DNA of 64,000 bases from assembly GCA_002898315.1 (NCBI GenBank), contig BEHV01000002.1, positions 62,001-126,000 of the forward strand. Reading direction: 5' to 3'. The notes beneath the pieces are model-generated. The model had not been told where the DNA came from and did not search any database. It saw only the letters and a program-made list of their open reading frames with translations. Of the stretch, positions 2 to 2,825 are shown piece by piece. A program made the position numbers and the translations under genes. The DNA is from a bacterium HR19 (lineage in GTDB: Bacteria; Calescibacteriota; Calescibacteriia; Calescibacteriales; Calescibacteriaceae). Positions within the stretch are counted from its first letter, which is position 1. Each line of letters starts with the position of its first letter.

Positions 2-928
2 GCTGGCTGTCATGCTATGATGCTCATACCATTGCGATACGCTCTTAATGCGGTGATACTTCCGAAATTTGATGCGAAACATTTCCTTGAAGTTATGAAG
101 AGAAAAGGTATAGTGATGGTTTATGCTGTCCCGTTCCACCTTCTTTCTGTTATGAGAGAGGAGGAGTTTGAAAAATCTGACCTTGAACACATAAAGCTTA
201 TTATGTTTGGAACCGCTCCGATGCCACCTTGGGCTGTAAAAAAACTCGCAGAAAAACTTCCATCAACATGGATTATGAACCTTTACGGAGCTACCGAAGC
301 GGGAATGGCAGGGTGTTTCCTCCCACCGGGTATGGCTTCTCAAAAACCAGATTCTATCGGAATACCACTCCCCCCAACAGAAGTCAAAATATGTGATGAT
401 GATGGTAATGAAGTGCCACGAGGACAGAAAGGAGAGATATGGATGCGTATCCCCGGAGTAGACCCGAGAAAATACTTCAAAGATGAAGAAAGCTCAAAAA
501 AAGTATGGACGGAAGATGGATGGGTCAAGACAGGAGATATAGGATATATGGATGAAGATGGCTATCTTTATGTTGTTGATAGAAAAAAAGATATAATAAT
601 ACGTGGTGGTTTCAATATATCGTCTGCGAAGGTTGAAGGTGTGATTATGTCTCATCCAGATGTTGTTGAGAGCGCGGTTGTAGGAGTTCCCCATCCACTT
701 TTGGGAGAAGATGTCTTCGCATTCGTTGTCGCAAAAAGAAAAATATCTGAACAAGAACTTATAAACTTTCTCAAAGATAAGCTTGCAGATAATGAAATAC
801 CTCGCTACTACGAGTTTGTAGATGAACTCCCTAAAAATGCAACGGGCAAAGTTTTAAAATACGAGCTCAGAGAGAGAGCGAAAAAAATATACGAAGAAAG
901 AAGAAGGAAAGAAGGCAAGGAAGTTTGA
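2..928 (+). CDS. Acyl-CoA synthetase (AMP-forming), C-terminal part
   Basis: This is the C-terminal part of an ANL-superfamily ligase that activates a carboxylic acid to acyl-AMP and then acyl-CoA. The reading frame is open to the window edge, so the N-terminal half lies outside. Seen: the A5 motif YGATE about 90 residues in, the hinge/ATP region with KTGD then DRKKDIIIRGG, and the C-terminal PKNATGKV whose Lys is the adenylation lysine of the family. It stops 34 bp before a remnant mobile element that separates it from an acyl-CoA dehydrogenase. The two were probably one fatty-acid-use operon. The acyl substrate cannot be read from the sequence. Confidence 0.93.
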   Translation, partial: AGCHAMMLIPLRYALNAVILPKFDAKHFLEVMKRKGIVMVYAVPFHLLSVMREEEFEKSDLEHIKLIMFGTAPMPPWAVKKLAEKLPSTWIMNLYGATEAGMAGCFLPPGMASQKPDSIGIPLPPTEVKICDDDGNEVPRGQKGEIWMRIPGVDPRKYFKDEESSKKVWTEDGWVKTGDIGYMDEDGYLYVVDRKKDIIIRGGFNISSAKVEGVIMSHPDVVESAVVGVPHPLLGEDVFAFVVAKRKISEQELINFLKDKLADNEIPRYYEFVDELPKNATGKVLKYELRERAKKIYEERRRKEGKEV

Positions 929-951
929 GTCAAAAATTTTTATAAGCTGAC

Positions 952-957
952 GGGAGG
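952..957 (+). promoter_or_regulatory. Stranded Shine-Dalgarno (GGGAGG)
   Basis: A strong GGGAGG lies 24 bp after the acyl-CoA synthetase stop, but no start codon follows it at a useful distance. Joining position 962 to 1607, that is, removing the remnant element, puts GGAGG exactly 9 nt before the ATG at 1611. I infer it was the ribosome binding site of the acyl-CoA dehydrogenase before the insertion. Confidence 0.55.
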
Positions 958-962
958 GGCAA
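957..962 (+). repeat. 6-bp direct repeat GGGCAA flanking the element (copy 1; copy 2 at 1601-1606)
   Basis: GGGCAA occurs at 957-962 and again at 1601-1606, bracketing the remnant element. IS200/IS605 elements do not make true target duplications, but their left-flank and right-end cleavage sites can be alike. The pair could therefore be the two cleavage sites or a short duplication. A 6-bp match alone is weak. The support comes from the restored Shine-Dalgarno spacing. Confidence 0.45.
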
Positions 963-984
963 TCAACAGTTAAAGGAAAATGTG

Positions 985-1000
985 CAATTTTGCGCAATTG
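985..1000 (+). repeat. Left-end subterminal hairpin
   Basis: CAATT (985-989) and AATTG (996-1000) are perfect inverted repeats around a 6-nt loop TTGCGC. Subterminal hairpins recognised on single-stranded DNA by TnpA are typical of IS200/IS605 ends. Confidence 0.45.
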
Positions 1001-1069
1001 GAGTTAAATGTTGCTAAGTGTGAAAAAAAGTTCAAAAACTTTATAATATCAAAAGAGGAAGAGAGAAAA

Positions 1070-1234
1070 ATGCTAACTGCTAAAACTACAATTCAAGCGA
1101 GGCTTTTGATTAAAGGAGAACGAAAACAAATACTTGATGACCTTATGAGACGGTGGTCTTCTTGTATGAGATTTGCATACAAAAGACTTCTTGAAGGAAA
1201 AACAAGAAACGAACTTAAACATATTTTTTACAGG
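1070..1234 (+). pseudogene. TnpB/OrfB N-terminal fragment
   Basis: From the ATG at 1070 the frame reads a basic segment resembling the N-terminal helix-turn-helix part of IS605 OrfB/TnpB proteins: ARLLIKGERKQILDDLMRRW, then a segment ending RFAYKRLLEGK. TnpB is an RNA-guided DNA nuclease of about 380-420 residues. Here the similarity stops after about 53 residues, and the RuvC and zinc-finger parts are absent. The frame happens to stay open to 1597, but that extension is Gly/Arg/Pro-rich translation of the folded RNA region and not TnpB. It cannot encode an active nuclease. Confidence 0.7.
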
Positions 1235-1239
1235 AGAAT

Positions 1240-1606
1240 TTTTCAAAGCCCTCAGTGTGAGTCAGGGACGGTGTCTGGGGAGACCGAAGGAAGGAACTCA
1301 GGCACTGCGGGGCATCCAGGGAGGAGAGCCTTCCGAAATCTCTGGCAAGTGCTGAGGGTAGCGGTGCTAACAGCACTCTCTCCTGAGGGGCAAAAAGTTC
1401 CAAGATGCTTCTCTCCCTTGAAGCCTTTGATGGTTTCAGGGGAAGTGGGGAGAATCCAGAAAGGGCGTGAGTTCCTGCTACTTGGGGCGGGGGCTATGGG
1501 TGTCCAAATGCCGCCAGCCGGGTCTCTGGACACCCTGAACAGGCGGGGTATAAGTAACCCGGCACCCAAACTGTGTAAAACTGCACAGTTCGGGTAACCA
1601 GGGCAA
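1240..1606 (+). ncRNA. Candidate TnpB guide RNA (omegaRNA/reRNA) region
   Basis: A GC-rich block ends at the right end of the remnant element, where TnpB guide RNAs lie. Pairings I can see: 1297-1306 with 1348-1356 (one bulged G); 1364-1368 with 1372-1376; 1409-1416 with 1447-1454 (one G-U pair); 1498-1505 with 1528-1535 (perfect 8 bp); and 1564-1575 with 1584-1595 (12 pairs with one A-C mismatch). In intact systems the guide begins just after the element end, here around 1607 inside the next gene. Expression and the exact 5' end are unknown, and the cognate TnpB is missing locally. Confidence 0.55.
1564..1595 (+). repeat. Right-end hairpin of the element
   Basis: ACCC-A-AACTGTG (1564-1575) pairs with CACAGTT-C-GGGT (1584-1595) around an 8-nt loop, with one A-C mismatch. 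It lies 11 bp before the inferred element end and may act both as the TnpA-recognised right-end hairpin and as the last stem of the guide RNA. Confidence 0.6.
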
Positions 1607-1610
1607 GTTT

Positions 1611-2825
1611 ATGATTGACCTAACACTGACACAGGAAGACAGAGAGCTTATAAAGAATATAAGGTTTTTGGGAGAGAAGTTCATGCGTCCTTTGGGAATA
1701 GAGTATGATGCAAAGGGCGAGCCAGTCCCACCAGACCACCCGTTCTTCAAGATGCTCGCTCAAATAGGATATCAGGAAAGAGTTGCCGGTATGGGAAGAG
1801 AGATGGACGACCTGAAAGACGAAAAGGGGAAAAAAGAGAGAACCTCTGCAAGAAGAGCCGTTCTTATCGGAGAGGAGACATCTTACTGGGATAGAGGTGT
1901 TGCAGTCGCTCTGCCGGGACCCGGTCTTGCCGGTCCCCCTCTTATGCTCATCGGTACTCCCGAGCAGAAAGAGAAGTATCTTTCTATTTTCAGAGATAGA
2001 GAAAATCCGCACTGGGGCGCTTTTGCTATGACCGAGCCCGGTGCCGGTTCAGATGTTGCAAGAATAAAGACCCGTTGCGTCAAAAAGGGAGATAGATGGA
2101 TACTGAACGGAGAAAAGGCGTTCTGTTCTAATGCAGATAGAGCGGACTTTGTTGTAGTTTGGGCTACTGTTGACCCAAAGCTTGGCAGAGCGGGACACAG
2201 AGCTTTTATAGTAGAAAAAGGAACCCCGGGTTTCAAGGTCACGAAAATAGAAAAGAAGATGGGACTTTCTGCTTATGCTTCTTGCTCTCTCGTGCTTGAA
2301 GATTGTGAGGTTCCCGAAGAAAATCTCCTTGGGGGAGAGAAAGCTTATGAAGGAAAAGAGGGTTTCAAGACAGCTATGAAATCATTTAACGCTACCCGTC
2401 CTACAATAGCAGCTATGGCAATAGGTATAGCTCGTGCTGCATACGACTATACCAAAAACTTCGTAAAAGAAAATTACATGCTTTCAAGACCTATTCCAAG
2501 ATACCATAAGATAAAGGAAGATATGGCAAGGGTGAGGAGGTATATAGAGGTTGGGAAGCTTCTTTGTTGGAAAGCGGCGTGGAAAGCTGATATGGGGATT
2601 GTGAATATAGTTGAGGCATCGCAGGCGAAGGCGTTCTGTCCTTTTGTTGCGCAGGAAGCGGTTTCGCTATGTCTTGATGTCCTCGGAGATGCAGGAGTTC
2701 AAAATGACCACTATGTTGAAAAACTTTACAGAGATGTCAAAGCGCTTGATATAGTTGAGGGAACGGGACAGATTCAAAGAGTAATAATAGCTCGCCGACT
2801 CTTTGACTTCCCATCAGAAGAGTAA
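1611..2825 (+). CDS. Acyl-CoA dehydrogenase
   Basis: This is a flavoenzyme (404 aa) that makes the first alpha,beta double bond in an acyl-CoA and passes electrons to ETF. Seen: the FAD/substrate motif AMTEPGAGSDVA (139-150), the NGEKAFCSNA segment, and the C-terminal VEGTGQIQR in which Glu383 aligns with the catalytic base of the medium-chain family. The length is normal. No Shine-Dalgarno lies directly upstream because the remnant element sits 4 bp before the start codon; GGGAGG at 952-957 is its probable former site. It is followed directly by the epimerase gene, with the ATG right after the stop. Chain-length preference is unknown. Confidence 0.94.
   Translation: MIDLTLTQEDRELIKNIRFLGEKFMRPLGIEYDAKGEPVPPDHPFFKMLAQIGYQERVAGMGREMDDLKDEKGKKERTSARRAVLIGEETSYWDRGVAVALPGPGLAGPPLMLIGTPEQKEKYLSIFRDRENPHWGAFAMTEPGAGSDVARIKTRCVKKGDRWILNGEKAFCSNADRADFVVVWATVDPKLGRAGHRAFIVEKGTPGFKVTKIEKKMGLSAYASCSLVLEDCEVPEENLLGGEKAYEGKEGFKTAMKSFNATRPTIAAMAIGIARAAYDYTKNFVKENYMLSRPIPRYHKIKEDMARVRRYIEVGKLLCWKAAWKADMGIVNIVEASQAKAFCPFVAQEAVSLCLDVLGDAGVQNDHYVEKLYRDVKALDIVEGTGQIQRVIIARRLFDFPSEE

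What the first reader, a model, noticed from the sequence alone, without database searches (positions are those of the whole stretch)
929..1610. Decayed TnpB element split a Shine-Dalgarno from its gene
Seen: GGGAGG (952-957) is stranded; GGGCAA flanks a 644-bp insert at 957-962 and 1601-1606; joining 962 to 1607 restores GGAGG 9 nt before the acyl-CoA dehydrogenase ATG. The insert has a TnpB N-terminal fragment, a folded GC-rich RNA region and end hairpins. This is a clear case where element entry rewired translation of a catabolic gene and may now place it under the element's own transcript.
Basis: partly seen in the sequence, partly recalled or inferred. Interest (0 to 1): 0.72.

Follow-up and report, generated by a model that had tools for sequence, protein, structure and literature searches.

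The report
TnpB transposon targeting Shine-Dalgarno sites
The stretch is a crippled TnpB jumping gene sitting exactly in a gene's ribosome-binding site, and its relatives in several bacterial phyla do the same thing repeatedly, even in front of essential genes, apparently because the element's right end leaves a usable weak replacement.

Summary
Window ~960-1602 is an internally deleted IS607-type TnpB element (TnpB N-terminal remnant plus complete omegaRNA/right end) inserted in the Shine-Dalgarno (SD) of an acyl-CoA dehydrogenase. A same-genus genome keeps the uninterrupted AAGGAGG-10 nt-ATG.

The larger result is family-wide. Of 70 distinct insertions from Aquificota, Thermoanaerobacter-type genomes and Caldisericum, 45 (64%) place the right end 3-14 nt before the ATG of an ORF, always sense, against 8% for other GGAGG sites and 24% for intergenic ones. 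The left flank is GGAGG in 37 of 43 copies. An exact filled/empty pair at fabI shows AAAGGAGG|TAATTTATG becoming AAAGGAGG|element...TAACCAGG|TAATTTATG. Targets include rplM, rpmA, metG, fabI, glmU and rho.

So this lineage inserts into SDs; its AGG right end, and in Aquificota and Thermus a terminal tnpB stop codon, probably supply replacement initiation (inferred, untested). Published IS607 TnpBs with AGGAG TAMs fit, but I found no paper stating the SD link. In the window the element is a stranded relic.

The parts
17..928 (+). upstream operon gene, AMP-dependent ligase (3' part of the gene; the window edge cuts it)
   Evidence: PF00501 E 2.9e-28 and PF13193; same gene order in G001 and G002
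952..959 (+). GGGAGGGG: left half of the acyl-CoA dehydrogenase SD = element target site; inferred GG crossover at 958-959
   Evidence: sequence; family left flanks GGAGG in 37 of 43 copies; empty site AAGGAGGTGAACCTTTTATG in G002
960..999 (+). left end: CAATC AACAGTT... with palindrome TGTGCAATTTTGCGCA at 981-996
   Evidence: 86% identical to the left end of L015 over 964-999; consensus
1020..1047 (+). promoter-like site inside the element, pointing to the downstream gene (weak)
   Evidence: 10 of 12 consensus positions; 2 sites found in the region, 0.7 expected in shuffles
1070..1221 (+). TnpB N-terminal remnant (about 50 aa)
   Evidence: TIGR01765; up to 87% aa identity to Aquificota copies
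1220..1244 (+). internal deletion junction; about 320 codons of tnpB, including the RuvC core, are missing
   Evidence: blastn gap between 1219 and 1245 against about 1 kb in L014, L148 and others; intact TnpB is 496 aa in L148, the window frame 175 aa from the TnpB start
1245..1602 (+). omegaRNA/reRNA region and right end, ending ...GGGTAACCAGG; the natural guide would start right after 1602
   Evidence: 73-81% identity to right ends of intact copies; covariation; no Rfam match
1569..1590 (+). right-end hairpin AACTGTGTAAAACTGCACAGTT
   Evidence: sequence; present in right ends of relatives
980..1597 (+). 205-aa ORF across the element (TnpB N-terminus joined in frame to the omegaRNA-encoded tail) ending at TAA 1595-1597, 5 nt inside the right end
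   Evidence: same frame and stop in most Aquificota copies and at the annotated TnpB stop in Thermus
1600..1602 (+). AGG supplied by the right end, 8 nt before the ATG; putative replacement SD
   Evidence: anti-SD duplex -3.9 kcal/mol against -11.0 before insertion
1611..2825 (+). acyl-CoA dehydrogenase, the gene whose SD was split
   Evidence: PF00441 and PF02770; 97% identical in G002, with the same start codon

Best explanation
Window ~960-1602 is a non-autonomous, internally deleted member of an IS607-type TnpB element lineage whose target is GGAGG, which in practice is mostly the Shine-Dalgarno core of genes, in sense orientation. Insertion is by GG crossover without target duplication (shown by a filled/empty pair at fabI). 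It leaves the host SD at the left junction and puts the right end, ...TRACCAGG, where the SD was. Translation of the downstream gene then probably continues at reduced strength from the AGG in the right end, helped in the Aquificota and Thermus branch by ribosomes ending at the terminal tnpB stop codon (inferred, not tested). That would explain why copies are found in front of essential genes. In the window genome the nuclease core is gone and no serine transposase or intact TnpB of this family was found, so the copy is a stranded relic between an AMP-dependent ligase gene and an acyl-CoA dehydrogenase gene.
For: Element identity and ends. Empty sites: (same genus) and, exact to the base, (fabI: G108 at 96% identity, G099 and G160 empty; G107 filled). 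SD targeting: 45 of 70 distinct insertions have an ATG-started ORF 3-14 nt after the right end (53 of 70 with any start codon); random positions 4.4%, other GGAGG sites 8.1%, intergenic GGAGG 24% (p 2e-12); holds separately in Aquificota (21/26) and Thermoanaerobacter-type genomes (24/44). Left flank GGAGG in 37 of 43. Downstream proteins begin at profile position 1-3 of L27, L13, FabI, MetG, GlmU, Rho, ThiC, RimM and PurM, so the start codons are true. Same target and end in Thermus plasmids and Peptoclostridium, with annotated neighbours. Relic status.
Against: About a quarter of copies are not before a recognisable start: one lies in a SAM-riboswitch-like leader (L192), one inside mnmE (L206), and two of three Thermus plasmid copies have no start nearby. 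So the recognised thing is the sequence GGAGG, and purging of harmful insertions must contribute to the SD enrichment. The replacement-SD energy (mean -4.7 kcal/mol, random -2.5) is weak. The omegaRNA-encoded tail shows no protein-like codon conservation, and in Thermoanaerobacter-type copies the terminal TRA is not the tnpB stop. The genome is only 82% complete, so absence of partners is provisional.
Confidence: 0.8

Rival explanations
1. The element only needs GGAGG; the SD enrichment is a survivor effect. Insertions inside genes are purged, and among non-coding GGAGG sites SDs are common. No feature of the element is adapted to restore translation.
For: IS607 TnpA itself needs only (G)GG (PMC6188088); copies exist in a riboswitch and inside a gene; intergenic GGAGG is already 24% SD.
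Against: 64% observed is well above 24% (p 2e-12), and splitting SDs of rplM, rpmA, metG, fabI and glmU should itself be purged unless translation is restored. TRA-CCAGG is present in 67 of 70 intact right ends.
Confidence: 0.35
2. One reading: a chance insertion of a TnpB element bounded by GGGCAA direct repeats that cut off the SD and put the gene under an element transcript.
For: GGGCAA is present at both places; a promoter-like site lies at 1020-1047.
Against: Ends of more than 40 relatives do not include GGGCAA; the precise filled/empty pair shows no duplication; insertion at SDs recurs.
Confidence: 0.05
3. The element was domesticated as a leader or regulator of the acyl-CoA dehydrogenase gene, for example an omegaRNA acting in trans with a TldR-like or other TnpB.
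For: The omegaRNA part is intact in all conserved columns while the nuclease is lost.
Against: No TnpB of this family elsewhere in the genome (the one other TnpB, L002, is of another type and has an in-frame stop); absent from the same-genus genomes, so there is no sign of retention.
Confidence: 0.04

Closest known systems
IS607 family (serine transposase TnpA plus TnpB; IS607, ISXfa1)
   Same: GG crossover, no target duplication, ends with GG; a serine recombinase frame precedes tnpB in several relatives and an annotated IS607 family transposase does so in Peptoclostridium; reported (G)GG target (PMC6188088) and GG crossover (PMC10711439).
   Different: Described IS607 has minimal target specificity; this lineage has GGAGG at nearly every left junction and sits before start codons.
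IS607 TnpBs guided by RAGATH-18-derived RNAs (ISFba1; PMC11061315)
   Same: TAM 5'-AGGAG in 18 of 22 strains, that is, an SD-like motif.
   Different: The RNA here is not RAGATH-18 (no Rfam match at E 0.1); the paper text contains neither 'Shine' nor 'ribosom'; insertion sites relative to genes were not its subject.
Group B IStrons and ISBth15 (PMC4227781)
   [quoted passage not shown] IS607-type; host damage limited by the element.
   Different: IStrons are rendered harmless by self-splicing and 58% of sites are intragenic; here there is no intron and most sites are SDs.
TIGR01765 'tspaseT_teng' TnpB elements (Thermoanaerobacter, Thermus, Aquificota)
   Same: Direct sequence membership of the TnpB remnant.
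   Different: The window copy lacks the RuvC core and is one of several internally deleted forms (133-830 bp) seen here.

Membership tests
TIGR01765 TnpB elements | TnpB N-terminal domain above the curated cut-off | tested here: met
   51.2 bits against 47.25
TIGR01765 TnpB elements | RuvC nuclease core | tested here: not met
   deleted in the window copy; present in intact relatives, so membership is as a deletion derivative
TIGR01765 TnpB elements | omegaRNA at the right end with conserved structure | tested here: met
IS607 family | GG crossover without target duplication | tested here: met
   exact filled/empty pair of a relative at fabI; for the window by homology of ends only
IS607 family | serine recombinase TnpA | tested here: not met
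   absent from the window copy and from its genome; present in relatives
RAGATH-18 IS607 TnpB systems | RAGATH-18 RNA at the right end | tested here: not met
   no match in Rfam scans of the window or of eight relatives
RAGATH-18 IS607 TnpB systems | AGGAG or GAGGG TAM by cleavage assay | not testable with these tools
   left-flank GGAGG is consistent, but TAM needs an assay
group B IStrons | group I intron fused to the IS | tested here: not met
   no group I intron match in the window or the relatives scanned
IS200/IS605 family | insertion next to a T-rich tetra- or pentanucleotide, HUH transposase | tested here: not met
   target GGAGG, GG crossover

The most novel reading that the evidence does not exclude
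A multi-phylum TnpB transposon lineage has specialised on Shine-Dalgarno sequences as insertion target and TAM, and carries a built-in replacement initiation signal (stop codon, then CCAGG) at its right end. In the Aquificota branch it even captures the host SD at its left end to start its own TnpB from a TTG, so that host ribosome-binding signals are swapped at both ends and insertion before essential genes is nearly harmless.
Probability: 0.4. Interest if true: 0.8.

Novelty: new variant of a known kind. Interest (0 to 1): 0.62.

Why it matters
Mobile elements usually avoid damage by choosing gene-free sites or by splicing out. A TnpB lineage that inserts into the ribosome-binding site of genes, including essential ones, and leaves a substitute would be a different way to stay harmless. 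It would explain why IS607 TnpBs have an AGGAG TAM, since that motif marks the start of genes in most bacteria. It also means that the guide taken from the flank reads the start codon region of a host gene, which bears on how such systems give rise to guide-RNA regulators. All of this is directly testable in cultured Thermus or Thermoanaerobacter.

Tried and rejected
GGGCAA as element boundary: rejected by comparison of ends. IS200/IS605 (HUH) type: rejected by the GG junction and serine recombinase relatives. Rfam RNA identity: no match. RAGATH-18 by accession: the tool takes no name and my guess RF02687 is RAGATH-8, so the extension to RAGATH-18 elements was not tested. Protein-coding conservation of the omegaRNA tail: codon-position differences 0.318/0.322/0.344, no signal. 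Other copies in the window's own genome: none. Copies in about 95 distant genomes by DNA: only chance-level short matches. Plasmids and phages: only Thermus and scattered distant hits. Terminator inside the element: none found.

Full report
What is in the window. Between an AMP-dependent ligase gene (17-928) and an acyl-CoA dehydrogenase gene (1611-2825) lies a 682-nt spacer. A 57-aa stretch translated from 1070-1240 matches the TnpB N-terminal family TIGR01765 at 51.2 bits, above its cut-off. A search of public genomes with it found 49 loci, mostly Aquificota MAGs (up to 87% aa identity) and Thermoanaerobacter, Caldanaerobacter and Caldisericum genomes. Alignment of the spacer to these loci shows two conserved blocks, ~960-1219 and 1245-1602, separated in intact copies by about 1 kb of tnpB that the window lacks. 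The missing part holds the RuvC core, so the nuclease is dead.

Right end. In the relatives the second block ends in ...GGTAACCAGG (or TGACCAGG), after which the sequences differ. The window reads GGGTAACCAGG up to 1602. The block is an omegaRNA by position and by covariation: 51 of 103 consensus pairs have compensatory changes among 16 sequences. It matches no Rfam family.

Left end. Relatives read GGAGG|TTARCAACAGTTGA in Aquificota and GGAGG|TCAAAACAGTTGA in Thermoanaerobacter-type copies. In 43 copies with a recognisable left end, 37 have GGAGG at that junction. The window reads GGGAGGGG|CAATCAACAGTT, so the left end starts at ~960.

Empty sites. The same-genus genome G002 (acyl-CoA dehydrogenase 97% identical) has stop codon - 34 nt - ATG with AAGGAGGTGAACCTTTTATG, and G001 has a similar strong SD. 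An exact pair exists for a 390-bp derivative in front of fabI: G108 (96% identity), G099 and G160 read CGCAAATAAAGGAGG|TAATTTATG (with small differences), and G107 reads CGCAAATAAAGGAGG|TTAGTAACAG...GGTAACCAGG|TAATTTATG. So insertion is 3' of GGAGG, with a GG shared by both junctions and no duplication, as expected for IS607-type serine transposases (PMC6188088, PMC10711439). Serine-recombinase coding sequence precedes tnpB in several relatives (read from the sequence), and one in Peptoclostridium is annotated as an IS607 family transposase.

Family-wide pattern. I took 70 copies with an intact right end and distinct right flanks. In 53 a start codon 3-14 nt downstream opens an ORF of at least 50 codons; in 45 it is ATG. 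Controls in the same loci: random positions 10.9% and 4.4%; GGAGG sites outside left ends 16.7% and 8.1% (n = 899); intergenic GGAGG 32% and 24% (n = 90; p = 2e-12 for ATG). By group, 21/26 in Aquificota (including the window) and 24/44 in the Thermoanaerobacter-type set. Distances peak at 6-9 nt. NCBIfam confirms true N-termini for L27, L13, FabI, MetG, GlmU, Rho, ThiC, RimM and PurM directly after right ends. Exceptions are informative: L192 lies in a leader that reads like a SAM riboswitch, which also carries GGAGG (from sequence, not scanned), and L206 lies inside mnmE, so the recognised thing is GGAGG, not the SD as such. In Thermus plasmids three of four left ends have GGAGG, and in T. 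oshimai the annotated tnpB stop is followed by CCAGGTCAG and the annotated GTG of the next gene. In Peptoclostridium the element reads AAGGAGG|TTAAAAACAG ... GTAACCAGG|CACAAGTATG.

What happens to translation (inferred). Insertion lowers predicted anti-SD pairing from a mean of -11.4 to -4.7 kcal/mol (random 18-mers -2.5); in the window from -11.0 to -3.9. A weak SD therefore remains. In 67 of 70 copies the three bases before CCAGG are TAA or TGA. In most Aquificota copies, including short derivatives without the nuclease and the window (205-aa ORF, 980-1597), one frame runs open through the omegaRNA to that stop, while the other frames close within about 18 codons; in Thermus it is the annotated tnpB stop. 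Termination about 11-14 nt before the next start would allow translational coupling. The tail is not conserved as protein, and the frame is not kept in Thermoanaerobacter-type copies, so coupling is a hypothesis for one branch. Occupation of SDs of rplM, rpmA, metG, fabI and glmU, genes that are essential in most bacteria (general knowledge), argues that enough translation is left.

Left-end capture (hypothesis). GGAGG is followed 9-10 nt later by TTG in 33 of 43 copies, and in several Aquificota tnpB-only copies this TTG opens the 515-565-aa TnpB frame, so the stranded host SD may drive TnpB. In the window that codon is TTA and the frame closes after 15 codons.

State of the window copy. No second copy, no resolvase-family transposase and no intact TnpB of this family were found in the 82%-complete genome; the one other TnpB (L002) is of a different type. 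Same-genus genomes lack the element. It is best read as a stranded, horizontally acquired relic. A promoter-like site at 1020-1047 keeps open, but does not show, that the downstream gene is transcribed from the element.

Comparison with the literature. [quoted passage not shown] Searches of the held library for TnpB or IS607 together with Shine-Dalgarno or ribosome binding site found no paper that makes the connection. The library lacks most subscription papers, so this is not proof of novelty.

Noticed in passing
L146, L150, L151, L152, L174, L010, L021 left ends: Host GGAGG plus a TTG 10 nt into the element opens the whole TnpB frame (515-565 aa where complete); the displaced host SD may drive TnpB translation.
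   Followed up: partly
L163, L170, L171, L166 (about 390 bp), L172 (133 bp), L210 (486 bp), L222 (217 bp): Short tnpB-less derivatives keeping both ends, so non-autonomous forms seem common in this family.
   Followed up: partly
L192, base 1247 onward: A copy inserted in what reads like a SAM riboswitch leader (right flank GAAAGAGCCCGATGAAACCCGGCAACC), a non-SD GGAGG target.
   Followed up: no
L002 (own genome, G000:C5 about 90-91 kb): A different TnpB gene, apparently interrupted by an in-frame TAG (...KKL*KVLSRKK...), with an unrelated right end.
   Followed up: no
L148:899-1597, also L016 and L018 upstream of tnpB: A possible passenger gene in place of tnpA (product ends ...LISVLEEYTERAKDYLSVLEERRNA), unidentified.
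   Followed up: no
L199 and L200 (same Thermoanaerobacter MAG): Two copies before different genes share the right flank CGCAATATATTATGGAA, possibly a longer right end or a carried-over flank.
   Followed up: no
L244 (Thermus phages Lalka27a, 27b and 8): A TnpB-family gene in the phages is followed by a short repeat array annotated as CRISPR.
   Followed up: no
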